NCBI RefSeq assembly: GCF_002156875.1
Contig: NZ_NCSY01000001.1
Span: 1 to 64,000 of the forward strand
DNA length: 64,000 bases
DNA from: Bacillus sp. EAC
GTDB taxonomy: Bacteria > Bacillota > Bacilli > Bacillales > Bacillaceae_G
Direction of reading: 5' to 3'
Shown here: positions 48,773 to 61,417 of the stretch, one piece after another
How the letters are laid out: every line of letters starts with the position of its first letter
How positions within the stretch are numbered: position 1 is the first letter of the stretch
Program-made: the position numbers and the translations under genes
The notes under the pieces: model-generated
The model's database searches: none
What the model was told of the DNA's origin: nothing
The model's input: the letters and a program-made list of their open reading frames with translations, nothing else

Positions 48773-49489
48773 TTAATTTTTATCCTTCAAAAAATCAATT
48801 ATCCCATCAACAATTGAATTTGTTGTGTTTGTTTGAAATTCTTCTGAAGTCATGCGTGCCTCATCAGTAGAATTTGAAATGTATCCAAGTTCAAGTAAGA
48901 TAGCTGGCCTTGTGTTCTCTCTTAATACATAGTAATCGCCAAAACTTACACCACGATCTCGTGCATCCAAACCATTTTTAAATAGTTGATCGTGTATTAA
49001 CGCTGCTATAGGCTCGTCCGATTTTTTATTATAATAACTTGTTATCCCTTCAACTTCATTTGTAAAAAAGGCATCAAAGTGGATACTAACAAATAAGTCT
49101 GCATTGTTGTCCTCAGATATTTTCACACGATCTGCAAGAGAAACTTTCACATCATCATTACGGGTTAATATAATATTTGCACCCGTTTTTTTTTCTAATT
49201 CATTTTCAAGATTTTTGACCATTGCTAAAGTTACATCTTTTTCATTTGTTCCATTCTGACCACTTGCACCTATATCTTTTCCACCATGACCGGCATCAAT
49301 TACAATTGTTTTACCTGTCAATATCTTTTCAGTAGTGCTATTATCTTTATTTCCTGTCGATGCTTGTGCGGAATTTTCTTTATTTATAGATATTCCATTA
49401 TCTTTAAGTTTAAAGATTAAAATTACCATTATAATTGATATCATTACTAATAATAAATTTCTTCTCCTCTTTTTTTCCTTTCGTCTCAT
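48773..49489 (-). CDS. N-acetylmuramoyl-L-alanine amidase (Amidase_3), membrane-anchored
   Basis: A 238-residue protein. A highly basic start (RRKEKKRRRN) and one hydrophobic segment (about 11-27) anchor it to the membrane. The zinc amidase domain covers about 58-237, with the first His and Glu in IDAGHGGKDIGASG and GTNEKDV, the second His in LFVSIHFDAF and the catalytic Glu in AILLELGYISN. It cuts the bond between muramic acid and the stem peptide. ATG 49489 follows GGGGGGAAATTCG. The gene lies just downstream of the deacetylase gene and has a weaker version of the shared 11-bp repeats upstream. No separate wall-binding domain is present. Confidence 0.9.
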   Translation of the reverse strand: MRRKEKKRRRNLLLVMISIIMVILIFKLKDNGISINKENSAQASTGNKDNSTTEKILTGKTIVIDAGHGGKDIGASGQNGTNEKDVTLAMVKNLENELEKKTGANIILTRNDDVKVSLADRVKISEDNNADLFVSIHFDAFFTNEVEGITSYYNKKSDEPIAALIHDQLFKNGLDARDRGVSFGDYYVLRENTRPAILLELGYISNSTDEARMTSEEFQTNTTNSIVDGIIDFLKDKN

Positions 49490-49572
49490 CGAATTTCCCC
49501 CCTAAAATTACTATCTATCATTCAGATATTTAATAGTTTAATTCTTAATAATGAAGACAAAATCAACTTTAA

Positions 49573-49594
49573 ATAAAGTTGAAATGAAGATTGA
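49573..49594 (-). promoter_or_regulatory. Weaker 11-bp direct-repeat site upstream of the amidase gene
   Basis: Units ATAAAGTTGAA (49573) and ATGAAGATTGA (49584) with 11-bp spacing resemble the boxes at 50607, 52227 and 56848. The expected -10 position holds only TTTTGT, so this site is less certain. An overlapping short hairpin could also be the deacetylase terminator. Confidence 0.45.
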
Positions 49595-49600
49595 TCAATT

Positions 49601-50533
49601 TCAAAGACGTCGATCATTCCAAAAATTTAATTGAAAATGTTCGTTCGGGTTATATACCTTAAGTGCATACCCTTTTGCTTTTAAAAAGCTAATTATTTCA
49701 GGAAGTGCTTCCAATGTTGTTTGCTTTTCATGTAATAAAATGACTTCTTTATTTTTGGTTGTTTGCTTCTTCACTTCATTTAAAATGTTGGAAGGATTCG
49801 CAGTATTCTTCCAATCATTTGTATCTACATTCCAGTCCCATATTTTTAATCCTGCGTTAACTGAATCATTGCGAAGTTTTTGGCTCATGCTCGGTCTAGA
49901 TCCATATGGAGCACGGACCAATCGAGTATTTTCACCAGTCAATTTATTAATAATTGATAAAGTTTGTTGCATTTCTGAAACAAAAAGACCTTGTTTGTAT
50001 AATCGATCATAGTTATGAGTCATACTGTGAGCCCCAATATAATTACCGTCTTGAACTGCCCTTTTTACAACATCTCGGTGTTCATTCAAGTTTTTTCCTA
50101 TCATAAAGAAAGTCGCATGTACTTTTTCATTCTTTAATACTTCTAGAATTTGGTTTGTCAGCGCACTCGGTCCATCATCGAATGTCAGATAGACTACTTT
50201 CTGATCTTGTTTAATTTGTTGTTTGATATTTGGTTGAATTAAATTATTTACTTTCTTCTGTTCATTAGGTTCGTTTTGACTAGTTTCTTTTGGTTTACCT
50301 GGTTTCTCATTTGTTGAGTTAATAGCATTACCAGCTGTGTTATGCTTGGCTCTGTTTTTAGAAGTCTTTATTTGTACCTGTTCGCTTTCGGCACTTTTTG
50401 CTACATTTTCAACAGCAAATCCCTTCAATTTACCAATTAAATAGTAAATAAGCGAGAGTAGAAGAAAGACTGCACATAAACTTAAAAATGCTCTTTTTAA
50501 CACCCTTTTTTTCTTTCTTTTACGAGATTTCAT
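49601..50533 (-). CDS. Polysaccharide deacetylase (NodB domain), membrane-anchored
   Basis: A 310-residue protein with a strongly basic N terminus and one transmembrane segment (about 15-32), then a Lys/Asn-rich linker (about 40-110). The NodB domain (about 112-300) shows the metal-binding Asp pair in TFDDGPSALT, the H-x4-H pair in GAHSMTHNYD and RAPYGSR. Such CE4 enzymes remove acetyl groups from peptidoglycan or chitin oligomers, often giving lysozyme resistance. ATG 50533 follows AAGGAGAG. A strong 11-bp repeat box controls its promoter. It is separated from the SBP gene by a terminator. Substrate unproven. Confidence 0.9.
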   Translation of the reverse strand: MKSRKRKKKRVLKRAFLSLCAVFLLLSLIYYLIGKLKGFAVENVAKSAESEQVQIKTSKNRAKHNTAGNAINSTNEKPGKPKETSQNEPNEQKKVNNLIQPNIKQQIKQDQKVVYLTFDDGPSALTNQILEVLKNEKVHATFFMIGKNLNEHRDVVKRAVQDGNYIGAHSMTHNYDRLYKQGLFVSEMQQTLSIINKLTGENTRLVRAPYGSRPSMSQKLRNDSVNAGLKIWDWNVDTNDWKNTANPSNILNEVKKQTTKNKEVILLHEKQTTLEALPEIISFLKAKGYALKVYNPNEHFQLNFWNDRRL

Positions 50534-50590
50534 CTCTCCTTCACCGTACTCTCCACTCCTTGAATATCTTTATAAATCCTCTTATTAATA

Positions 50591-50649
50591 AAGATAAAGG
50601 TTCCAAATAAAGATGAGATAAAGATGAAATGAAGATTGATGAAGATTGA
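50591..50649 (-). promoter_or_regulatory. 11-bp direct-repeat operator and promoter of the deacetylase gene
   Basis: Units ATAAAGATGAG (50607), ATAAAGATGAA (50618), ATGAAGATTGA (50629) and ATGAAGATTGA (50639). On the minus strand they end 10 bases before a TATCTT -10 box (50591-50596). The tandem spacing of about one helix turn is typical of OmpR/PhoB-family regulators. Confidence 0.75.
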
Positions 50650-50723
50650 TAAAAATTAACAAAAAAGACCAAAATTCCGTTTGTTACTGTTTCTAAAGAT
50701 TGAAAAATCGTAATTTGGATATG

Positions 50724-50749
50724 AAAAAGAGACCACTTTAATGGTCTCC
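50724..50749 (-). terminator. Terminator after the solute-binding protein gene
   Basis: Stem AGACCA/TGGTCT with loop TTAAAG and five T on the minus strand. Confidence 0.8.
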
Positions 50750-50768
50750 TAGAAATTTCTATATTCTT

Positions 50769-52175
50769 CTACTCGTTTAGGTAGGTCATTACTCTGTTTT
50801 GTATAATATCCGCCACACTTTCCGCGGATTTTTGCCCCTTAAAATAGCTATTGGCTTCTTCCTCTATGATTGTTCTGATTTTCTCATTCCATCGAACTTG
50901 TGTATTCGCCTCAGAAATCATTTGTTTCAAAGGTTCAAGTGAAGCTTCTGAAACTGTTACAGTGCTGCCCTTTCCTCCATTACCTTTTATATTATCTACT
51001 TTTCCTTCTATTACATCGCTAAATTCCTTCTCATTTGCCGCGATATTCACAGGAAACATACCACTTATAGATTGAGTTTGAACCTCATAAGAAAGTAAGA
51101 ATTTCAGGTAATCCCATGCTTCCATTTTGACAGTTGAATTTGCATTCATCGCATACTGATCGTAACCAGAGAAGGTAACACCCATCTCTTTTTCAGAAGA
51201 ATGCGGAAAATCGTAAATGGTCGCACCATTCTGATAGTAAATAGCTGAACGCATCGCATAATCTTTTGCAGAATAGATTGGTGAGCTTGTAAAATACGTT
51301 GTTTTCTGCACACCGAGCTGGTAATCCGATAAAACGCCGTCGTCATACATTTTTTTTACTCGTTTGAGTAAATCAATAAATAACGGAGAATCAAATCTGG
51401 CTTCCTTTTTCTCGGTATCAACAAGTTTGTCGTAGTTTTCATTTGAGAATACCAAGGGATTTAAGATACCTTCAGGTGTAACTTGCATCACAGTATCAAG
51501 TGTCCCTTTTGACTTTAGCTCCTTGCTTATTTCTGTAAATCGACTCCATGTCCAGTTTTGGTGGTCATCTATTTGGAGACCTGTTTTTGAAATCGCTTCC
51601 TGATTCGCAATTAATGCACCTAATGAAAAATGCGTGGGCAAAACGTAAAGACCACCGTTTATTTTAGAATGTTCAAGAATGTTCATGTAATATTGACTTT
51701 TCTCAAAAGACGTATCTTTTTCAATGTATTGATTGAGATCAACAAAGGCATTTTTAGCAATGTATCGATCGATTGGCAAACTTTGATCGTTCAAGATGAA
51801 TAAATCTGCACCTTTTCCAGATAACACTTCTGTCGTCGTCTGTGAAACGTATTTCTCAAGTTGAAGAAGAGATATCCCTCCACCGCCAGAAGCAAAGCTT
51901 TTCAGTTCGATTGTAATATTTGGATGTTTTTTTTCGTATTCCTTCGCTGCCAATACAAAGTCTGGGTGTTTCCCTAAGACTGAGATGGTTATCGTTTTTT
52001 TCTCATCCTTACTTACCTTTAACGAAAGATCTTCTCTATTCACAATATTATTACTATTTTTCGAATGATTTTGTTCTGAGATATTGTTATCATCTTTTTG
52101 TGTTACGCCACTACTACAAGCGAAAAGACTAAACATAGTTATTAAACTCATCATTAAAGACATTATTCTTTTCAT
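50769..52175 (-). CDS. ABC-type sugar solute-binding lipoprotein (SBP family 1)
   Basis: A 468-residue lipoprotein (signal with lipobox LFACSSG, Cys20). The body has the features of family-1 solute-binding proteins: TISVLGKHPDFVLAAKEYEK in the first strand-helix pair and the ELKSFASGGGG segment. The length agrees with oligosaccharide or glycerol-phosphate binders. ATG 52175 lies behind AAAGTGAGATGAGTAA. Together with two permease genes (54977-56770) it would form a carbohydrate importer; an ATPase is not encoded nearby. It has its own 11-bp-repeat promoter and a terminator on each side, so it can be expressed at a different level from the permeases. The ligand is unknown. Confidence 0.87.
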   Translation of the reverse strand: MKRIMSLMMSLITMFSLFACSSGVTQKDDNNISEQNHSKNSNNIVNREDLSLKVSKDEKKTITISVLGKHPDFVLAAKEYEKKHPNITIELKSFASGGGGISLLQLEKYVSQTTTEVLSGKGADLFILNDQSLPIDRYIAKNAFVDLNQYIEKDTSFEKSQYYMNILEHSKINGGLYVLPTHFSLGALIANQEAISKTGLQIDDHQNWTWSRFTEISKELKSKGTLDTVMQVTPEGILNPLVFSNENYDKLVDTEKKEARFDSPLFIDLLKRVKKMYDDGVLSDYQLGVQKTTYFTSSPIYSAKDYAMRSAIYYQNGATIYDFPHSSEKEMGVTFSGYDQYAMNANSTVKMEAWDYLKFLLSYEVQTQSISGMFPVNIAANEKEFSDVIEGKVDNIKGNGGKGSTVTVSEASLEPLKQMISEANTQVRWNEKIRTIIEEEANSYFKGQKSAESVADIIQNRVMTYLNE

Positions 52176-52210
52176 TTACTCATCTCACTTTCTTTTTTTC
52201 ACTTATTGTA

Positions 52211-52248
52211 AGAATACCCGCCTTAAATAAAGATGAAATGAAGATGAA
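52211..52248 (-). promoter_or_regulatory. 11-bp direct-repeat operator and promoter of the SBP gene
   Basis: Units ATAAAGATGAA (52227) and ATGAAGATGAA (52238) with a partial third unit. On the minus strand they end 10 bases before TATTCT (52211-52216). Confidence 0.75.
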
Positions 52249-52325
52249 ATGAATTTTTTTAAAAGATTAATAAAAACTTTATCATAATAACTGATCGGCT
52301 AATTTTATGAACATTAGCCTAAAAT

Positions 52326-52353
52326 AAAAAATCGCCCTTTTTAAAAGGCGATT
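52326..52353 (-). terminator. Terminator after the OmpR-type two-component genes
   Basis: Stem AATCGCC/GGCGATT with T/A-rich middle and T6 on the minus strand. Confidence 0.8.
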
Positions 52354-52393
52354 CAACAGAAGAAAAATATACTTAATTTTTCCAAACACGTTT

Positions 52394-54217
52394 TCACTTA
52401 TTTTTATTTAAGCAAAAGTAAAATAATACGCCATCCGATGTATTCATGACACCATACTTCGCATCATGTAGTTCTAATATATTTTTTGAAATGGCAAGAC
52501 CTAGCCCAGTACTACCTTCTGTTCGTTGCCTTGAGGTATCTCCGCGATAGAAACGGTCCCAAACCCTATCTAATTGGTCTTTGGGAATATGTGACCCTTT
52601 ATTTTCAACGTATACTTTCACTTGCTCATCCTCTATTTTCGTTGAAATATAGATATGTTCATGATCAGGGGTATAGCGGATGGCATTTGTCATATAGTTC
52701 GTAATGACTTGTTCAATTCGATGTTCATTTGCGAATACTTCGATTGATACTAAATCTTTATGAATCGTTAGTTTCTTTTTCTCAATTTCTAAAGATAATT
52801 GACTACAAATCTGTTCAATCACTTTATCAATAAAAAATGATTCCATTTTCATTTTATACGTTCCAGATTCGTATTTTGCAAGTTCAAGCATATCAACGAT
52901 TAATAAGTCCATCTTGTCTACTTCTTTTTCCATCGCTTCAAAATAGTAGTCCTTCTTATGACTAGCAACACCGTCTTTTAAGATTGAAATACAACTTTTC
53001 ATAATACTGAGTGGGGTCTTCAATTCATGAGAAACACCTGAAATGAATTCTTTTCTTGTATTTTCTAATTGTTTTTCTTTCTCAATATCTTGTTGTAGTT
53101 GTGTAATATGTGAATGTAGCGTATTCGAAAGTAAATTTATATTCTGAGATAAGTCGCCAATTTCATCTTTCGAACGATATTCTATTCGTTCTGAAAAATC
53201 TAAGTGAGCAATTTTTTTAGTTGAATCGTTAATTCTTAATAATGGTCTTGCAATTTTTATTGAATAGTAAACGGATGCTAAAATTGTAAGTAGTAAAACA
53301 AATGCAATTATATAGACAAAATAGTCTTTTACCATTTGTACTGCTTCATCTACTGGTTGTAAGGAGGCCATTGCATAAATATAATTTATTTCACCCTTTT
53401 CATCCTTAAGTGGATCAATAAACAATTTATACTTTATGCCATTTTGTTCATAATCAAGCGTTTTGAACGTTTCGTACTTATTTTGTTCATCAAACAATAA
53501 ATTGGTCTGAAATTCATTGATACGATCCATAAATAAACTATTACTATATATGATGCTCGAAACGTCATTCCGATTAGGAATTCGTACGTCTCGCACGACT
53601 CCCTTTAATCGATTGATATGAAAATTAGTATTATATTTTTGAGTTAAATCAACTATCTCTTTTAATTTATAATTTTTATTATCAGGTTGAATCTCTTTAT
53701 CGATGTTAGTCCAAATAAATTGATTTACCCAGTATGTGTTATTCTGTAACGAATATAGATAAAATGGGATAATTCTATTATTTTTTTCAATCGTAAAAAG
53801 ATCAACAGAATCGCCTTTTGAAATAGTAGGAGGATTTTTCAACACATCTTCGGTTTTTATTAATTGATACAGTGGTATCTTTAATATTTGTTTTGTATTC
53901 TTTTTATTTGCTTCTATCTTAATTTCCGCATAAAAATCATTAGCTGACTTTATATTCCCATTTTGATCTAATGTTGTTATCCATGTATTTTGAGTGCGAT
54001 AAAAGTCTTGCTCTAATTGCTGGATTGTTTGAAGGTTGCCGCCCTTTTTTTGGTATTGTTTCTCAAAAGATTCGATACTTGATTTCAGATCATTTACTTT
54101 TCGATTTGCATAGTATTGTTTAAAAAAGATTGTTTGACCAATATAAATGGATCCTGTGATTAGTAAGCACAAAGTTGTTGTTAATAAAAACAGTTTTAAG
54201 ACAATCCCAAATTTCAT
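52394..54217 (-). CDS. Sensor histidine kinase of an OmpR-type two-component system
   Basis: A 607-residue kinase: TM1 (about 8-28), a large extracytoplasmic sensor domain (about 30-295), TM2 (about 300-320), HAMP (about 320-372), an HisKA domain with the phosphorylated His in FISGVSHELKTPLSIMKSC, and an HATPase domain with TNAIRYTP, the G2 box GSTGLGLAI and DRFYRGDTSR. The 265-residue sensor part is unlike short PAS-type ones and could bind a protein, such as the SBP, or a glycan (inference). The ATG overlaps the regulator stop by 4 bases. It is located between the ABC permease and SBP genes, which points to control of sugar uptake and wall genes. Confidence 0.92.
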   Translation of the reverse strand: MKFGIVLKLFLLTTTLCLLITGSIYIGQTIFFKQYYANRKVNDLKSSIESFEKQYQKKGGNLQTIQQLEQDFYRTQNTWITTLDQNGNIKSANDFYAEIKIEANKKNTKQILKIPLYQLIKTEDVLKNPPTISKGDSVDLFTIEKNNRIIPFYLYSLQNNTYWVNQFIWTNIDKEIQPDNKNYKLKEIVDLTQKYNTNFHINRLKGVVRDVRIPNRNDVSSIIYSNSLFMDRINEFQTNLLFDEQNKYETFKTLDYEQNGIKYKLFIDPLKDEKGEINYIYAMASLQPVDEAVQMVKDYFVYIIAFVLLLTILASVYYSIKIARPLLRINDSTKKIAHLDFSERIEYRSKDEIGDLSQNINLLSNTLHSHITQLQQDIEKEKQLENTRKEFISGVSHELKTPLSIMKSCISILKDGVASHKKDYYFEAMEKEVDKMDLLIVDMLELAKYESGTYKMKMESFFIDKVIEQICSQLSLEIEKKKLTIHKDLVSIEVFANEHRIEQVITNYMTNAIRYTPDHEHIYISTKIEDEQVKVYVENKGSHIPKDQLDRVWDRFYRGDTSRQRTEGSTGLGLAISKNILELHDAKYGVMNTSDGVLFYFCLNKNK

Positions 54218-54894
54218 ACAGTTTCCTCAAACTTATATCCTGTTCGAATGATCGTTGAAATCAGCTTTGATTTACTGCCTAATTTCGTCCGTAAATTACG
54301 TATGTGTGTATTAATAGTTCGATCATCACCATTGTAGTCATAGCCCCAAACCTTTTGAACGAGTTGTTCCCTTGTAATAACGATCCCCTGATTTTGCATT
54401 AAATAAGTTAATATTTCAAATTCTGTATGGGTTAAATTGATATTTTCACGATCAACTTGGACTTTCCGTGAAGAAAAATCGACCGAAATACCATGTTTGG
54501 ACAATGTATCCTTCGAGGTATCATTCGTTTTATATCTACTTTCAAGCAATCGTTTAACTCTAGCCAGCAAAATTGGAGGACTATAAGGTTTTGTCACATA
54601 GTCATCGGCACCTAACTCAAACCCTAGCAGTGTATCATCCTCATCAGCACGTGCAGTTAACATGATAATTGGTACATTTGAAGTTTTACGTATTCTTCTA
54701 CAAACTGCCCATCCATCGACTTTCGGCAACATAATATCAAGAATAATGAGATGAAAATCTATTTCTTGATACAATTCCAATGCTTGTTCACCATCGATTG
54801 CTTCAATTACTTCATGACCTTCACTTACTAAATAATCTTTCACTATTTCACGTAAAATCGTTTCATCTTCTACGATTAAGATTTTGTACTGCAT
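54214..54894 (-). CDS. OmpR-family response regulator
   Basis: A 226-residue regulator. The receiver is residues 1-120 with EDET near the start, phospho-acceptor Asp53 in HLIILDIMLPKVDGW and Lys102 in DDYVTKPYSP. The C-terminal winged helix (about 130-225) shows LTHTEFEILTYLMQNQGIVI and DRTINTHIRNLRTKLG. It is partner of the overlapping kinase gene. This subfamily binds tandem direct repeats spaced by 10-11 bp, exactly the type found at three promoters around it. It sits 83 bases after the permease genes and may be partly transcribed with them; it has no repeat box of its own. Confidence 0.93.
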   Translation of the reverse strand: MQYKILIVEDETILREIVKDYLVSEGHEVIEAIDGEQALELYQEIDFHLIILDIMLPKVDGWAVCRRIRKTSNVPIIMLTARADEDDTLLGFELGADDYVTKPYSPPILLARVKRLLESRYKTNDTSKDTLSKHGISVDFSSRKVQVDRENINLTHTEFEILTYLMQNQGIVITREQLVQKVWGYDYNGDDRTINTHIRNLRTKLGSKSKLISTIIRTGYKFEETV

Positions 54895-54976
54895 GATCTT
54901 TCCTCGCTCTCTTTCTATACTCTCCCATACTTATATTTTAACCAACATGGAATTTTATTAATTCTCAATGGATCCT

Positions 54977-55888
54977 TTAATCCTTCGCACCTGATAGCTG
55001 AATTCCTTTGATTAAATATTTTTTTGCGATTCCAAATATAAATAACATTGGTGCCATATATAGAATGGATGCTGCGAATCCAATCCCTCTTGTATCTTGG
55101 ATGATTTGAGATAAATAAAGTGACAATGGGAATTTTGAAGGATCATCTAAAAAAATAAGAGGTTGTTCTACCATGTTCCAATAATCTGCAAATAATAAAA
55201 CGACTAGCGCTGCAAGTCCTGGGCGAATTAGCGGCAATATGATTTTTTTAAAGATCGTAAAGTGACCAGCTCCATCTATTTTTGCAGCTTCAATATATGA
55301 ATATGGAATCGTCATGACGAATTGTCTGAGCATAAACACGCCAAACGCACCAAATACTCCAGGAAAGATGATAGCACCAAAGCTATTTAAAAGTCCTAAT
55401 TTATCAGCAATAATATAATTTGGTACAAGTGTTACTTGAAAAGGCATCAGCATGGTTACCATATAAATTAAAAATAATGTGTCCCTTCCTTTGAACTTTA
55501 GTTTTCCAAACACATATGCTGCAAGTGATGCAACAATTAGTTGACCTAGTATGATTGGGAATACCATTAATACTGAATTTCCATAAAATTTCATATTTGA
55601 TTGTTCTTTGTCAATAAATGATTGTTTCTTATTAAAGAATGCTTTATATTGCTGAAATGAAAACCTATCAGGAAGCAACTTCAGATTGACGAACTGATCA
55701 TTTTTTGCTGCATTATTATCTTGTTGAATATCATTTTCTGAAGGATAATGACGGCTAATTTCATTTTCCGTCATAAAAGAATTGGATAACGTAAAAACGA
55801 CTGGGAAAACCATTACAGCTGCCATTATTAATAAAAAAGAAGTTAAAATCCATTTGGGAATTACACGATTACTTTTCATCCTCTTCAC
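54977..55888 (-). CDS. ABC sugar-type permease 2 (MalG-like)
   Basis: A 303-residue inner-membrane permease with six spans. The EAA loop reads EAAKIDGAGHFTIFKKIILP (about 198-217), which docks the ATPase. An extra 40-residue hydrophilic loop (about 40-90) follows TM1. The second-position permease of carbohydrate transporters is of this type. It follows permease 1 by 9 bases, so both form one unit. No ATPase gene is adjacent; a shared MsmX-like ATPase could serve, as for many Bacillus sugar importers. Confidence 0.9.
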   Translation of the reverse strand: MKRMKSNRVIPKWILTSFLLIMAAVMVFPVVFTLSNSFMTENEISRHYPSENDIQQDNNAAKNDQFVNLKLLPDRFSFQQYKAFFNKKQSFIDKEQSNMKFYGNSVLMVFPIILGQLIVASLAAYVFGKLKFKGRDTLFLIYMVTMLMPFQVTLVPNYIIADKLGLLNSFGAIIFPGVFGAFGVFMLRQFVMTIPYSYIEAAKIDGAGHFTIFKKIILPLIRPGLAALVVLLFADYWNMVEQPLIFLDDPSKFPLSLYLSQIIQDTRGIGFAASILYMAPMLFIFGIAKKYLIKGIQLSGAKD

Positions 55889-55897
55889 CTCTCATTC

Positions 55898-56770
55898 TTA
55901 ATTCATAAACTTACGATATCGACGTTCAATTGCGAAGAAAACAAACACTAGAATTAAAATACATAAAACCATTAACGACGCAGCAGCGGTTAGTTTTTGT
56001 ACATTTAATGACGCAAACATATTGTTCATATAGTGTTGAATCATATAAATTCGATCAAACGGATAATCTCCTGCGATTAGATAGGTTTCACGGAATACTT
56101 TGAATGAGTTAATAATGCTCATTAAAACAACAAAAAACATCGTAGGTGTTAAGTAAACCAAAGTAATCTGTCTAAATTTAAATAAACGACCTGCGCCTTC
56201 CATATCGGCTATCTCATAGTAATCTTTAGGAATATTTTGAAGTCCTGCTAAAAATAGAATCATGTTATAACCAATGTTTTTCCATAAATAAACAACAGAC
56301 ACAACAGCGATCGACCAATCCGATTTCATCCAATCGATTTGGGCAAACCCCATATTTACCAACCATGAATTAAATGTACCGTTCCAATCAAATAATAATT
56401 GCCATAGCATTACAATCGAAGCGACTGGTACAACAATTGGTAAGATAAATGAACTGATAATGACATTTTTAAATAATACTTTTTGATGCAAGCAAAGTGC
56501 GAGTACTAAAGAAATGCCGATTACTAGCGGGACATTGATCGCCGTAAACCAAAATGTATTTGAAGCTGCTTTCAAAAATGAAGCACTTGCTAATAGCTCT
56601 TTATAATTGAAAAGACCAACAAAAGAACCACCAACCGCTCCATCTTTAAATGAATAAATCGTACCCATTACAAAAGGGATTAGATAGAAAAGGGAAAAAC
56701 CTATCAAACTAGGCAATAAGAAAAATGTTGCAACTCTTCCATCGTTATTTAATTGTTTACGAATGTTCAT
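55898..56770 (-). CDS. ABC sugar-type permease 1 (MalF-like)
   Basis: A 290-residue permease with six spans (first: FFLLPSLIGFSLFYLIPFVM) and the EAA loop YYEIADMEGAGRLFKFRQIT near residue 187. It is the first gene of the permease pair and directly follows a three-unit 11-bp repeat promoter (56832-56877). ATG 56770 lies only a few bases after a moderate site. With the SBP at 50769 it would make a carbohydrate importer. Substrate unknown. Confidence 0.9.
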   Translation of the reverse strand: MNIRKQLNNDGRVATFFLLPSLIGFSLFYLIPFVMGTIYSFKDGAVGGSFVGLFNYKELLASASFLKAASNTFWFTAINVPLVIGISLVLALCLHQKVLFKNVIISSFILPIVVPVASIVMLWQLLFDWNGTFNSWLVNMGFAQIDWMKSDWSIAVVSVVYLWKNIGYNMILFLAGLQNIPKDYYEIADMEGAGRLFKFRQITLVYLTPTMFFVVLMSIINSFKVFRETYLIAGDYPFDRIYMIQHYMNNMFASLNVQKLTAAASLMVLCILILVFVFFAIERRYRKFMN

Positions 56771-56831
56771 GCACCCACTACTTTCTATAATTGAGATTTA
56801 CAAAACGCCTAATATATTCTGCTCGGAAAGA

Positions 56832-56880
56832 AGTATAGCCTACTGAGATAAAGATGAGATAAAGATGAAATAAAGATTTA
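56832..56880 (-). promoter_or_regulatory. 11-bp direct-repeat operator and promoter of the permease genes
   Basis: Units ATAAAGATGAG (56848), ATAAAGATGAA (56859) and ATAAAGATTTA (56870), exact 11-bp period. On the minus strand they end 10 bases before TATACT (56832-56837). Confidence 0.8.
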
Positions 56881-57133: not shown

Positions 57134-60100
57134 TTAACGTTTGACTGTAACTTCTTCCGCTGTAGTTGTTACTTTGAACCCATCCTTTGTAATTACATCT
57201 GCAGAAATAGTATACGTACCATCCGGAACATTTGCTTCAGGAGTCCATTTCATACGTAAAGTATGTTCATTAGTTACATCTTTCGTTTCAATTATGTTAC
57301 CTTTTGAATCTTTAATATTAATCTTCCAATCTACGCGATTATTTGCATAACCTGTAATTTGAGCTGGATTATTTTCGTTTACATTATATCCAGATACGTA
57401 AAACCAACTAAGAACCATGCCATAATCAATGTAAGATGTGTCACCCCAAACTCCGTAGCTTTGATTGTATGCATAATCATAACCCAATACAACGACACTT
57501 TTCGGCTCAGATGACACAGTGATCGATGTTTCTCCTACCTTTGTTTCATAATAATCACCATTTACAAACACGATGGCACCTTTGTATCCGGTACTATTTG
57601 GAGTGTCTGCAGCATCAAATGAAATTTCGTATTTCCCATTTTTTGGTTGCACTTGAATATTTGAAATTTTTACTGCAGTCGAATCCACCTTAACCGGAAG
57701 CTTTACATATTGTGGCTTCGCATTTTTATAATCCATCACAGTTTTAATTACATAATTGTAATTACCATCAGGAACTAGCTCACCTTTCTCGTTTGTCTCG
57801 TTCCATGTATATTGTGGTGCAGAGTATTCATCAAACTTATAGTAGAAATCACCGCTAAACATGCTATTTTTTGTAAATTTATATGGAGTACCATCAGCAG
57901 TAAATTCACTAAAGTTCCCTAACCATTTAACTTTACGTCCAGATGCATCTTCAATGTACATGTCAGTTTCTTTTAAATTTCGAAATACTTGAAACGATGG
58001 GAATACACCTGGTGCAAACGTATTTGGTGAAATAGTCATATGATCAACGTTAAATCCATTTCCATCAAATCCTAATGGACCATCTGACACATCATCCCAA
58101 AGTACAGTATATCCTAAATAAACCCCGTCATTCCATGGAGCAGGATCTATATTTTTTGGCTTTGTCCAGTCACCTAAAAAGCCCATATAAGGCATTGTTA
58201 GAGGGACAGCTTTATCTTTATTCACCCCAGATGGTACAAGACGAACAAAACCTTCCAAAAATTCTTCTTCTTTCATGTTAGATGGAAGATCTATTTTAAC
58301 GTCAATCGATTCATTTTCTCCTGGCTTTACTGTTACAACAGTACCCTTCGTATCTGTTACAACTTTATTGTTAACTTTGATATTTGCTCCGTTTACGCGT
58401 TTACTTTTTAATGCTAGGTATTCATGTGATTCATCTACTTTTCCATCATTGTTATAATCAAACGTTTTGTTCTCTGTTTCATCAGTTAAAAGATCAACAT
58501 AAACTGTATATTCTATGTCATTTACACTACTCTTCTTATTATCTTTATTTGCTTCTAGTAATGATTCTAAATTTAAGCTAAAGTCCACATTTTTATTATT
58601 TATTTCTTTAAGCGCTACTGCACCAGCTTGCTCGAGTGGTGTTTTTTTCCTAGTAATGATTGCAGGAGTATTAATTGCATTTTGAATTTGCATTAAACCA
58701 GAACCTTGAATACGTGGAGAATAAGGTATGGCATTATTCGTATTAGGGTCCATTAAAACATTTGAAGTATTCATTAAGGCAATTTTTGATTTTAATACAG
58801 TTTCCTCTGAATGTTTTAGTCCTTTTTTATATAATGACTGTAATAAAAGAGCAGCTCCACCGGCTACATGAGGTGTTGCCATTGATGTACCACTATACAC
58901 ATCATATTTGTTTCCAGTTACTGTCGAATATATATTTCCACCTGGTGCAGTAATTTCTGGTTTGAAATCTAATGTATAAGGTGCGCCATAAGATGAGAAG
59001 TAGGACATATTATTTTTAAATTCATTATCAACATATGTACCACTTGAAATTTGCATACTTACTTTTTCTCCACTAGATAGTTTAGATATTAAGGCATTAC
59101 CTACAGATTTAGAAGTTGTAACTGACGTCAAGAAGTATGGTGAAAAGTCAATATCAGCAAAGTCGGGTAAGCTTGAACCTGGTACTTGGATCAGTGCAAC
59201 TGCCCCATTTCTCGATGCCTGTTGTTGAAATTCAACATTTCCAACATAGCCGTATGGAGGAATCGGTTTCGTTACAACTATTTTTCCATTTACATCTTTT
59301 CCTTTGTAATCAATAGACCGTCCTTCACCAACGTAAACAAATTCATAATTTTTCCCTTTTTCTAAAACATTAGTTAGACTGTTACCAGCTTGATTTTTAT
59401 ATGGGAAAATATCACCGGATGTTGATTTCAAAGCATCCATATGAACTTTTGAATTTTCAAAAGATGATACAGATAATGCATAAGGACTGACACCGGGTGA
59501 CCCTACAGTTCCAATATCTGGGTTCTCTGCATATGGTTTCAATGACCTTTCTATTAGATTATTTTTCGTACTATAAGCTGCATTTCCACCTGCAACCACA
59601 ACTAAAGTACCCTGTTCAGTTGCTTGTCGAATCGCTTTTTGTACTGGGTCATCTTCTTCGCTTACCCATCCTGAATCACTACCTAAACTCATATTAATAA
59701 CATCAGCACCCATCGTAACTGCGTGCTGGATTCCAGCGATTATATCATCCTCGTATGCCCCACCACCGTTATCCGAAAATACTTTTTCCGCTAACAGTTG
59801 GACACCTGGAGCAATACCTTTCACACCATCATTCGTTTCGTCACCATTTGCACCGATTGTTCCTGAAACGTGAGTACCGTGTGCACTTCCATATGATCCA
59901 GGAATAACATCTGTATCATTATCAGCCCAATCGTATCCTGTCGGAACTTTGTCACTATACCAAATTTCGTTCACATTTGTTTCTGTAAATTTTCCTTGTA
60001 TCTTATCTTTTGTCCACTTTTCTTGTTGTTTCCCTTTATCAGTAATTGTCAAATCCTTATGTGTCCAATCAATACCTGAGTCGACAACTCCAACTACTAA

Positions 60101-60700
60101 TCCTTCTCCTTGATATCCGTATGATTCCCAAACTTTTTGAGCTTGTACTAATTCTTTGCTCGCTGCCATTGAAGGTTGGAAAACTCTAGCAATATGTATA
60201 TTCTTTACGCCTTCAACCGATTTGATTTCATTCACATTTTTATATTCTGTTTCAGTACTAAATCCATTGAAACCAGTAAAGAAACGATGTTTAACATGGA
60301 TATTTTCTTTTGTTTTGTTAAGTTTAGTAATGACTTGATCTTGCATGATTTTAAACTCTTTCTCTTTCGTTTGCTCAGACATTGATGTCGAATCTACTGG
60401 ACTATCAACCTCAACTATTAATCTTACTTTCTCATCTGGTTTAAACTTATTTACTTGTTTCTGGTTTGACTCATACAAGTCTTTATAAGCAACGTGATCG
60501 TTATCACTAGATTCATTTTTACTTTGACCAACTAATAATCCTTTTTTTATATAATCACTGATATTTCGATTTGTGTTTGTTTCATTAGATGAATCAGGTT
60601 GATTCATTCCTCCTTCTGCGAAAACAGTTGTTGAAAATAGTAAAACTGATAGACCAACAGAAGAAATCACTTTGTAAGGAAATACTTTTCTTTTTTTCAA
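57134..60700 (-). CDS. Vpr-like secreted S8 serine protease with Ig/fn3-like C terminus
   Basis: About 1188 residues from TTG 60700, which follows GGGTGGAGAG; a GTG nine bases earlier falls on that site. Layout: signal peptide (about 1-28), I9-type propeptide (about 95-175), subtilase domain with Asp (VVGVVDSGIDWTHKDL, about 207), His (GSAHGTHVSGT, about 274) and Ser (SGTSMATPHVAGGAALLLQS, about 605). A PA-like insert lies at about 440-550, then several beta-sandwich modules; FlgD/fn3-like pieces such as NEKGELVPDGNYNYVIKTV and EANVPDGTYTISADV end the protein. It is secreted, for protein degradation. It is not similar to the 7940 protease outside the catalytic core. No repeat-box promoter was found. 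Confidence 0.9.
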   Translation of the reverse strand: MKKRKVFPYKVISSVGLSVLLFSTTVFAEGGMNQPDSSNETNTNRNISDYIKKGLLVGQSKNESSDNDHVAYKDLYESNQKQVNKFKPDEKVRLIVEVDSPVDSTSMSEQTKEKEFKIMQDQVITKLNKTKENIHVKHRFFTGFNGFSTETEYKNVNEIKSVEGVKNIHIARVFQPSMAASKELVQAQKVWESYGYQGEGLVVGVVDSGIDWTHKDLTITDKGKQQEKWTKDKIQGKFTETNVNEIWYSDKVPTGYDWADNDTDVIPGSYGSAHGTHVSGTIGANGDETNDGVKGIAPGVQLLAEKVFSDNGGGAYEDDIIAGIQHAVTMGADVINMSLGSDSGWVSEEDDPVQKAIRQATEQGTLVVVAGGNAAYSTKNNLIERSLKPYAENPDIGTVGSPGVSPYALSVSSFENSKVHMDALKSTSGDIFPYKNQAGNSLTNVLEKGKNYEFVYVGEGRSIDYKGKDVNGKIVVTKPIPPYGYVGNVEFQQQASRNGAVALIQVPGSSLPDFADIDFSPYFLTSVTTSKSVGNALISKLSSGEKVSMQISSGTYVDNEFKNNMSYFSSYGAPYTLDFKPEITAPGGNIYSTVTGNKYDVYSGTSMATPHVAGGAALLLQSLYKKGLKHSEETVLKSKIALMNTSNVLMDPNTNNAIPYSPRIQGSGLMQIQNAINTPAIITRKKTPLEQAGAVALKEINNKNVDFSLNLESLLEANKDNKKSSVNDIEYTVYVDLLTDETENKTFDYNNDGKVDESHEYLALKSKRVNGANIKVNNKVVTDTKGTVVTVKPGENESIDVKIDLPSNMKEEEFLEGFVRLVPSGVNKDKAVPLTMPYMGFLGDWTKPKNIDPAPWNDGVYLGYTVLWDDVSDGPLGFDGNGFNVDHMTISPNTFAPGVFPSFQVFRNLKETDMYIEDASGRKVKWLGNFSEFTADGTPYKFTKNSMFSGDFYYKFDEYSAPQYTWNETNEKGELVPDGNYNYVIKTVMDYKNAKPQYVKLPVKVDSTAVKISNIQVQPKNGKYEISFDAADTPNSTGYKGAIVFVNGDYYETKVGETSITVSSEPKSVVVLGYDYAYNQSYGVWGDTSYIDYGMVLSWFYVSGYNVNENNPAQITGYANNRVDWKINIKDSKGNIIETKDVTNEHTLRMKWTPEANVPDGTYTISADVITKDGFKVTTTAEEVTVKR

Positions 60701-61417
60701 ACTCTCCACCCTTTCAAACGATTAATTGATAAGCGGGTAGTCTTTACAAGAAAACTAGAGGATTATTTAGAGAGAATAAGTCTAAAGTATTTGAAGTTTA
60801 TTACGAGAGGGACATCCCCATAAAAGTTACAAATAACAAAGAATTTAAGATTTTTTTAAGTAAATAAACCAAAATTATGTAGTACATAATTTCAACTTCC
60901 TTACGATCCCTTTATATAATCGCCCCTTTCGACTTCTACATTCCCTATTTCAAACTTAATCAAAATATTACAAAGTCTATTAAAATTTTCCACTTATTTT
61001 TCAATCAATCTTTGAAAATAGATCGGGAACTATATACATATTGTAGTTGTACTGGGAAACACTGTAAATTGGGGGAATTATTAGTTGTTTCATAGTAAAA
61101 ATAGACAATTTTCTTACTATGTAATGCCGAAATTCGGAGAAATAAATAGAAACATAGAAAATATTCTGTAAGTAGTTTATTAATATAAATATAAAGAATA
61201 GGAAGGTACGTATAACTTGGGGGAAACAGTAAATTAGTACTAAATACTTTACGGTTTTTTTGAGTAAATTGTCTACTTTTATACATTAATTATGACTTCA
61301 AACATAGTAGATTTAACTAGTGAAGCTGATTGCTATTAAACTCAACTATAAATTAATACTATTAAAACACTCTTGTAACTATCAGTTAAAACCATTGCTC
61401 CAGGAGCCTGAAATTAC
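60701..61417. other. Upstream region of protease 2
   Basis: About 700 AT-rich bases. A 93-residue frame at 61005-61286 lacks a ribosome binding site and looks fortuitous. No convincing promoter motif was singled out. Confidence 0.4.

What the first reader, a model, noticed from the sequence alone, without database searches (positions are those of the whole stretch)
49489..56880. A local regulon of sugar uptake plus cell-wall enzymes marked by identical 11-bp repeat promoters
Three promoters (permeases 56848, SBP 52227, deacetylase 50607) carry tandem ATAAAGATGAR units with 11-bp period, each ending exactly 10 bases before a TATNCT-like -10 box. A fourth, weaker copy precedes the amidase gene. 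An OmpR-type regulator and a kinase with a large external domain are encoded inside the cluster, and this family binds 10-11-bp direct repeats. The joint control of a sugar-type ABC importer with a peptidoglycan amidase and a polysaccharide deacetylase is unusual and suggests sensing or recycling of wall or exogenous glycan. I know of no named Bacillus system with this make-up.
Basis: partly seen in the sequence, partly recalled or inferred. Interest (0 to 1): 0.8.

Follow-up and report, generated by a model that had tools for sequence, protein, structure and literature searches.

The report
Wall-modification regulon with 11-bp promoter repeats
A sensor-regulator pair found in scattered Bacillales appears to mark its target genes with a fixed promoter code of 11-base repeats; the targets are mainly enzymes that chemically modify the cell wall, and the sugar importer seen in this window is a lineage-specific extra.

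Summary
Tandem 11-bp units (sense strand TCTTYATYTCATCTTYAT) lie exactly 10 nt before a -10 box at permease, SBP and deacetylase genes, with a weaker copy at the amidase gene. The link to the local OmpR-type pair is strong. In 299 genomes of the window's order the exact promoter pattern occurs in 20 of 22 that carry the kinase (E 1e-120 or better) and 1 of 277 others. Outside the training genus it marks deacetylase (29/37), amidase (26/43) and regulator (29/64) genes, against 9/947 other upstream regions. The interpretation needs revising. The shared core is kinase, regulator, and peptidoglycan deacetylase and/or amidase; about half the family adds O-acetyltransferase-like cassettes. The sugar importer is accessory: near the kinase in 15 of 64 clusters, incomplete or missing in three of seven Gottfriedia clusters. 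I read this as an activator-type regulon that modifies peptidoglycan, most likely against muramidases or other wall damage; that signal is inferred, not shown. Eight paper searches aimed at it listed no description.

The parts
56848..56880 (-). three 11-bp direct repeats (TCTTTATTTCA TCTTTATCTCA TCTTTAT in sense direction) of the permease promoter
   Evidence: conserved upstream of permease A in 6 of 6 Gottfriedia clusters that have the gene, one of them truncated
56832..56837 (-). -10 box TATACT, 10 nt after the last repeat unit
55898..56770 (-). importer permease A (BPD_transp_1)
54977..55888 (-). importer permease B (BPD_transp_1)
54214..54894 (-). OmpR/PhoB-type response regulator (Response_reg + Trans_reg_C)
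   Evidence: 90% or more identical in 7 of 13 Gottfriedia genomes, own included
52394..54217 (-). sensor histidine kinase: two hydrophobic segments, about 265-residue external Cache-like domain, HAMP, HisKA, HATPase_c
52227..52248 (-). repeats of the SBP promoter (TCTTCATTTCATCTTTAT in sense direction)
52211..52216 (-). -10 box TATTCT of the SBP promoter
50769..52175 (-). solute-binding protein (SBP_bac_1), best solved relative CbpC
50607..50648 (-). repeats of the deacetylase promoter (three clear units and weaker ones beyond)
50591..50596 (-). -10 box TATCTT of the deacetylase promoter
49601..50533 (-). PgdA-type polysaccharide deacetylase (CE4/NodB) with an N-terminal hydrophobic segment
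49573..49590 (-). weaker repeat pair of the amidase promoter (TCTTCATTTCAACTTTAT), 10 nt before TTTTGT at 49557-49562
   Evidence: relatives have similar sites, some closer to the consensus
48773..49489 (-). N-acetylmuramoyl-L-alanine amidase (Amidase_3) with an N-terminal hydrophobic segment

Best explanation
The kinase and regulator form a two-component system whose regulator binds tandem 11-bp units (TCTKYAY every 11 bp) placed where a -35 box would be, and activates a narrow regulon of cell-wall enzymes. Across the family the targets are a peptidoglycan GlcNAc-type deacetylase, an N-acetylmuramoyl-L-alanine amidase, in about half of the family an SGNH protein encoded with an OatA-like or MBOAT acyltransferase, and often the regulator's own gene. 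In part of the other half, including this window, a CUT1-type sugar importer has been added. A small secreted protein, D182, is a further target in some species. Most likely the external Cache-like domain senses wall damage or wall fragments made by muramidases, and the output changes the glycan strands (N-deacetylation, O-acetylation) so that such enzymes cut less well. The importer would then collect released sugars. Shown by comparison: the promoter code, its fixed spacing, its targets, and its co-occurrence with the kinase. Inferred: direct binding, activation, the signal, and the role of importer and D182.
For: Phylogenetic profile: exact pattern with a fixed -10 in 20 of 22 kinase-bearing and 1 of 277 other genomes; 38 of 43 exact sites lie within 10 kb of the kinase; the reversed control pattern has 1 hit in the 299 genomes. 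Gene assignment in a 34-genome search: 27 of 27 assigned exact sites precede regulator 13, amidase 5, deacetylase 3, SBP 2, SGNH 2, permease 1, D182 1; one exact site was not assigned. An unlinked exact site about 0.95 Mb from the pair in G018 precedes another Amidase_3 gene. Held-out weight matrix: deacetylase 29/37, amidase 26/43, regulator 29/64, D182 4/4, SBP 5/9, permease A 5/11, SGNH 3/16; genes usually inside operons 0 (kinase 0/66, permease B 0/12, MBOAT 0/13); other genes 9/947. TANNNT at exactly 10 nt in 72 of 93 sites, next best of distances 4-16 is 18. Within six ORFs of the kinase: amidase 45 of 64, deacetylase 43 of 64. The best solved relatives of the deacetylase include 5N1J, which is B. 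cereus BC1974; its B. anthracis counterpart BA1977 is described as a GlcNAc deacetylase involved in lysozyme resistance (PMC6115787, passages seen). SGNH with an AT3 or MBOAT membrane partner is the architecture of known cell-wall O-acetylation systems (PMC6174289, passages seen).
Against: No binding or expression data exist here. Amidases cut rather than protect, so a pure defence reading is incomplete. The SGNH/MBOAT cassette could acetylate another wall polymer (the passages name such a case). The external domain has no PDB sequence relative, no Pfam family over cut-off in the four sequences scanned and no known ligand. Two kinase-bearing genomes (G013, G016) lack the exact pattern, though their kinases fit a paralogue better; one motif-bearing genome (G108) lacks the kinase at the cut-off used. 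Four of 15 assigned one-mismatch sites precede no regulon gene, two of them in kinase-bearing genomes. The recognition-helix T/S change that goes with TCTT/TCTG half-sites happened once on the tree, so it is not independent proof. In the window's genus the motif and its target genes are absent together, so that comparison alone cannot separate regulator from targets. The pattern was refined on loci that share species with the genome set, so its sensitivity is partly in-sample.
Confidence: 0.6

Rival explanations
1. Glycan or muropeptide scavenging: the system senses exogenous or own wall sugars, and the deacetylase and amidase prepare fragments that the importer takes up.
For: An importer with its own copies of the promoter; several SBP relatives in PDB are sugar or oligosaccharide binders by name; one OB_MalK-bearing, MsmX-type ATPase elsewhere in the genome could drive it.
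Against: Permease A is near the kinase in 15 of 64 clusters and in none of the 32 of the other helix type; the pair persists where SBP or permeases are missing from the cluster; the deacetylase is of a wall type; no catabolic enzyme is among the window proteins scanned.
Confidence: 0.2
2. A growth-linked wall-remodelling system like WalRK, tuning autolysis and glycan maturation rather than answering attack.
Against: Patchy presence, 22 of 299 genomes, argues against a housekeeping role; the target list adds deacetylase and SGNH/acyltransferase genes.
Confidence: 0.15
3. The repeats are bound by another OmpR-type regulator (the HtrA-linked paralogue, WalR or PhoP), and the local pair is only a neighbour.
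For: Other OmpR-type regulators exist in every Gottfriedia genome searched, and direct repeats of this length are usual for the family (recalled).
Against: A 52-55% paralogue regulator is listed in 12 of 13 Gottfriedia genomes and its kinase in 13 of 13, but 21 of 22 exact 18-mer hits lie in the clusters of the seven genomes with the local pair; the order-wide profile follows this kinase; the motif sits before the regulator's own gene in 29 of 64 held-out upstream regions.
Confidence: 0.04
4. Amidase plus deacetylase make muramic delta-lactam or a similar modified wall, as CwlD and PdaA do in spores (recalled).
For: The same two enzyme classes are paired; the amidase's best NCBIfam score is CwlD.
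Against: Scores fall below the CwlD (138 of 222 bits) and PdaA (104 of 298) cut-offs, and the deacetylase fits the PgdA-type model better (260 bits).
Confidence: 0.05

Closest known systems
sigmaV-RsiV lysozyme response (B. subtilis, C. difficile, E. faecalis)
   Same: Switches on a peptidoglycan O-acetylation or N-deacetylation enzyme (PMC10202637, passages seen).
   Different: Uses an ECF sigma factor and anti-sigma proteolysis; here the regulator is a two-component pair with a direct-repeat promoter, and an amidase is a main target.
WalRK
   Same: OmpR-type regulator and kinase with HAMP and an external domain; controls wall hydrolases (listed abstracts).
   Different: Both proteins score far below the WalK and YycF model cut-offs; the pair is patchy; different target set.
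PhoB/PhoP-type activation from 11-bp direct repeats in place of a -35 box
   Same: Regulator family, 11-bp period, 10 nt to the -10 box (the PhoB comparison is recalled, not from a call).
   Different: Different half-site (TCTKYAY) and regulon; below the PhoB equivalog cut-off.
BC1974/BA1977 peptidoglycan GlcNAc deacetylase
   Same: 5N1J (BC1974, per PMC6115787) is among the best solved relatives of the window's deacetylase.
   Different: I saw no statement that those genes lie with a two-component pair (0 mentions of 'two-component' in PMC6115787); their neighbourhoods were not examined.
OatA and PatA/PatB O-acetylation
   Same: SGNH protein with AT3 or MBOAT membrane partner in related clusters.
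   Different: Here the SGNH protein and the AT3 protein are separate genes; the acceptor polymer is unknown; absent from the window.

Membership tests
OmpR/PhoB-type response regulator | receiver plus winged-helix output domain | tested here: met
   PF00072 and PF00486 over cut-off
OmpR/PhoB-type response regulator | direct-repeat operators of 10-11 bp | tested here: met
   shift-11 self-match excess in target promoters, Gottfriedia included: 29 of 161 with a score of 15 or more, against 0-2 for shifts 8-10 and 12-14; binding itself not testable
WalRK | equivalog scores of kinase and regulator | tested here: not met
   WalK 232 of 725 bits, YycF 209 of 340 bits
WalRK | near-universal presence in Firmicutes | tested here: not met
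   22 of 299 genomes of the order at E 1e-120 or better
PhoB/PhoP phosphate regulators | PhoB equivalog score | tested here: not met
   213.6 of 296.2 bits
sigmaV-RsiV lysozyme response | ECF sigma factor with RsiV-type anti-sigma at the locus | tested here: not met
   the cluster encodes a kinase and response regulator; none of the ten window proteins scanned matches a sigma or anti-sigma family
sigmaV-RsiV lysozyme response | induction by lysozyme | not testable with these tools
   needs expression data
PgdA-type CE4 deacetylase | NodB domain | tested here: met
   PF01522 115.6 bits
PgdA-type CE4 deacetylase | curated PgdA2 equivalog cut-off | tested here: not met
   NF045822 259.9 of 400 bits, so a relative, not a proven equivalog
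CUT1-type sugar importer | two permeases and an SBP, with a shared ATPase elsewhere | tested here: met
   PF00528 twice, PF01547; one OB_MalK match in the genome; substrate unknown; the CUT1 label is recalled
BceRS-type transporter-coupled sensing | kinase without external domain that depends on its ABC transporter | tested here: not met
   about 265-residue external domain; the pair occurs without the importer nearby
Cache-domain sensors | Cache/PAS-like external fold | tested here: inconclusive

The most novel reading that the evidence does not exclude
This is a dedicated two-component counterpart of the sigmaV lysozyme response: an uncharacterised external domain recognises muramidase damage or muropeptides and, through one strict promoter code, co-induces N-deacetylation, O-acetylation and stem-peptide removal of peptidoglycan, with a secreted protein of unknown fold (D182) and, in one part of the family, a wall-sugar importer as further outputs.
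Probability: 0.35. Interest if true: 0.8.

Novelty: new variant of a known kind. Interest (0 to 1): 0.6.

Why it matters
Peptidoglycan N-deacetylation and O-acetylation are the two classic changes that blunt lysozyme, and in B. subtilis, C. difficile and E. faecalis an enzyme for one of them is under an ECF sigma factor (passages seen). Here a compact two-component regulon with a readable promoter code appears to control enzymes of both kinds plus an amidase in scattered Bacillales (22 of 299 genomes sampled). The code is specific enough to predict members genome-wide: it pointed to an unlinked amidase gene and to the unknown secreted protein D182. That makes signal, binding and wall chemistry directly testable in harmless soil species.

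Tried and rejected
Recognition helix against half-site covariation looked striking (0 of 29 NT loci against 20 of 29 with S carry TCTG units), but the helix change maps to a single branch of low support, so I do not count it as independent evidence.

Seven extra 18-mer hits with 0-2 mismatches (two in G000, one each in G006, G007, G010, G012, G004) were fetched: none has TANNNT 10 nt downstream and several fall inside ORFs. I do not count them as regulon members. One of them, in TCS-less G012, is an exact 18-mer. The reversed control gave 7 hits over the 13 genomes, and that gave 4 in the 14 kinase-bearing and 2 in the 20 other genomes (one mismatch allowed in both).

The generic repeat tool found nothing in L092; its sites are more degenerate and appeared with the matrix.

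A 46% deacetylase homologue in TCS-less G004 shows, by eye, no repeats in the roughly 240 bases printed before its start; a single control.

Full-length kinase fold searches were filled by catalytic-domain matches. The D182 structure was not obtained, because the machine was busy and the last job went to the sensor. A plain Foldseek search with the sensor model was not run; only the second-look aligner was.

Papers: 10 of 10 searches used. Eight were aimed at this pair or its regulon, one at BC1974, one at MsmX. I saw listings and starts of abstracts, plus passages of three papers. None seen describes this pair; the library lacks most subscription journals. From memory, a 2008 study predicted regulator motifs in B. 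cereus; I could not check it.

Rows dropped: of 71 loci, L172-L174 (26-27% identity, Chitinophaga) were not annotated, and L170 has no full-length kinase. Alignment A1 has 53 kinases and A3 43 (L126 left out after a stop-codon error). One search counts 64 loci. One search left out the seven Gottfriedia training loci and G018, a duplicate of L163. One search used 14 of the 22 kinase-bearing genomes and 20 others. One search assigned 42 of the 45 hits (three G245 hits had no locus). Near-identical Paenibacillus strains inflate some counts.
Full report
OBSERVATION. The window holds seven co-directional genes on the - strand, from permease A (56770) to amidase (48773). Read in the direction of the genes they are TCTTYATYTCATCTTYAT, and the last unit ends 10 nt before the -10 hexamer in the four promoters, the amidase hexamer (TTTTGT) being poor. 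In the whole genome the only other place with 2 or fewer mismatches is C25:262098-262130, just before a 182-aa secreted protein (D182) without a Pfam family over cut-off.

GENUS-LEVEL TEST. The named records place the window's nearest relatives in Gottfriedia. Of 13 genomes of the genus, 7 carry the regulator at 90% identity or more. The exact 18-mer has 22 hits in the 13 genomes: 21 in the clusters of these seven, one inside an ORF in TCS-less G012. A paralogous pair (regulator 52-55% identical, listed in 12 of 13; kinase about 40%, in 13 of 13) lies beside an HtrA-like protease, named so by eye, in the window's genome; it does not explain the motif. The promoters are conserved in position and spacing. 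The importer varies while the pair stays: G006 has no SBP in the cluster, G002 has only pieces of SBP and permease A and no permease B, and the 9.5 kb fetched from G008 hold no importer, deacetylase or amidase gene but a repeat promoter before the regulator and D182 next door. Whether those genes lie elsewhere in these genomes was searched only for the deacetylase (absent from G008 at E 1e-40).

WIDER FAMILY. The kinase has relatives in many Bacillaceae, Lysinibacillus-type genera, Paenibacillus, Brevibacillus and Thermoactinomycetaceae (71 loci, 68 annotated). Of 64 loci with a typed recognition helix (32 with T, 32 with S), 45 have the amidase and 43 the deacetylase within six ORFs of the kinase. 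Permease A is in 15, all of the T type; SGNH (15) and MBOAT (12) are all of the S type. The two types meet at one branch of the kinase tree, which has low support.

PROMOTER CODE OUTSIDE THE GENUS. A matrix from 23 Gottfriedia sites, set at the 99th percentile of 947 other upstream regions, marks deacetylase 29/37, amidase 26/43, regulator 29/64, SBP 5/9, permease A 5/11, SGNH 3/16 and D182 4/4, but kinase 0/66, permease B 0/12, MBOAT 0/13, DHHW 0/12 and DUF4358 0/12, genes that usually lie inside operons. TANNNT stands exactly 10 nt downstream in 72 of 93 sites; the next best of the distances 4-16 has 18. With the fixed-spacing pattern, 14 of 14 chosen kinase-bearing genomes give 28 exact hits and 20 other genomes none; with up to one mismatch 43 against 2 (reversed control 4 and 2). 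Each of the 27 exact hits that could be assigned precedes a regulon gene. Of 15 assigned one-mismatch hits, 7 precede deacetylases, 3 SGNH, 1 amidase and 4 nothing recognised. Two targets are far from the pair: D182 (on another contig) in the window's genome and an Amidase_3 gene in G018 about 0.95 Mb away.

ORDER-WIDE PROFILE. Of 299 sampled genomes of the order 22 have the kinase at E 1e-120 or better and 21 have the exact pattern; 20 have both (Fisher p 7e-28, not corrected for relatedness). 38 of the 43 exact sites lie within 10 kb of the kinase; the other five are D182 sites in three Gottfriedia genomes, the G018 amidase and G108. The two kinase-only genomes, G013 and G016, have kinases closer to the HtrA-linked paralogue. 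The one motif-only genome is G108, whose site precedes an unrecognised frame. In the divergent G196 and G306 (kinase 41-42%) the site precedes near-identical proteins; that of G306 is a LytR-CpsA-Psr family member, a family known for attaching wall polymers (recalled). The pattern was refined on loci that include some of the same species, so sensitivity is partly in-sample; specificity (1 of 277) is not.

VERDICT. The regulon is well supported by comparative evidence and not limited to this window. The sugar-uptake framing is secondary. Binding, signal and biochemistry are inferred.

Noticed in passing
L047 (G000:C25), roughly 10-20 bases upstream of the repeats before D182; also L043 (G008): A perfect 20-bp palindrome AACTAACGCATGCGTTAGTT lies just upstream of the repeats; a second regulator may act there (by eye).
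   Followed up: no
window 57134-60709: A 1191-aa subtilase (S8, fn3_5) lies next to the cluster and is found beside it in three of the six relatives fetched; the four upstream regions printed show no repeats by eye.
   Followed up: partly
L048:3303-7051 (G000:C11 near 389-392 kb): A paralogous pair (regulator 55%, kinase about 40% identical) beside an HtrA-like protease (named by eye); its kinase is found in 13 of 13 Gottfriedia genomes and its regulator in 12 of 13.
   Followed up: partly
L041, L042, L043 (G002, G006, G008): Importer genes are incomplete or missing from the cluster while the two-component pair is kept.
   Followed up: yes
   Followed up: partly
L155 and L167 (Lysinibacillus): Two or more D182-like matches near the pair, suggesting duplication.
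   Followed up: no
L115, L119, L122, L127, L149 (Paenibacillus): An HlyD-like protein of about 370-390 aa recurs near the importer genes in these five clusters.
   Followed up: no
L110:7950-9170: A PGA_cap-type protein lies between permease B and the regulator in Peribacillus alkalitolerans.
   Followed up: no
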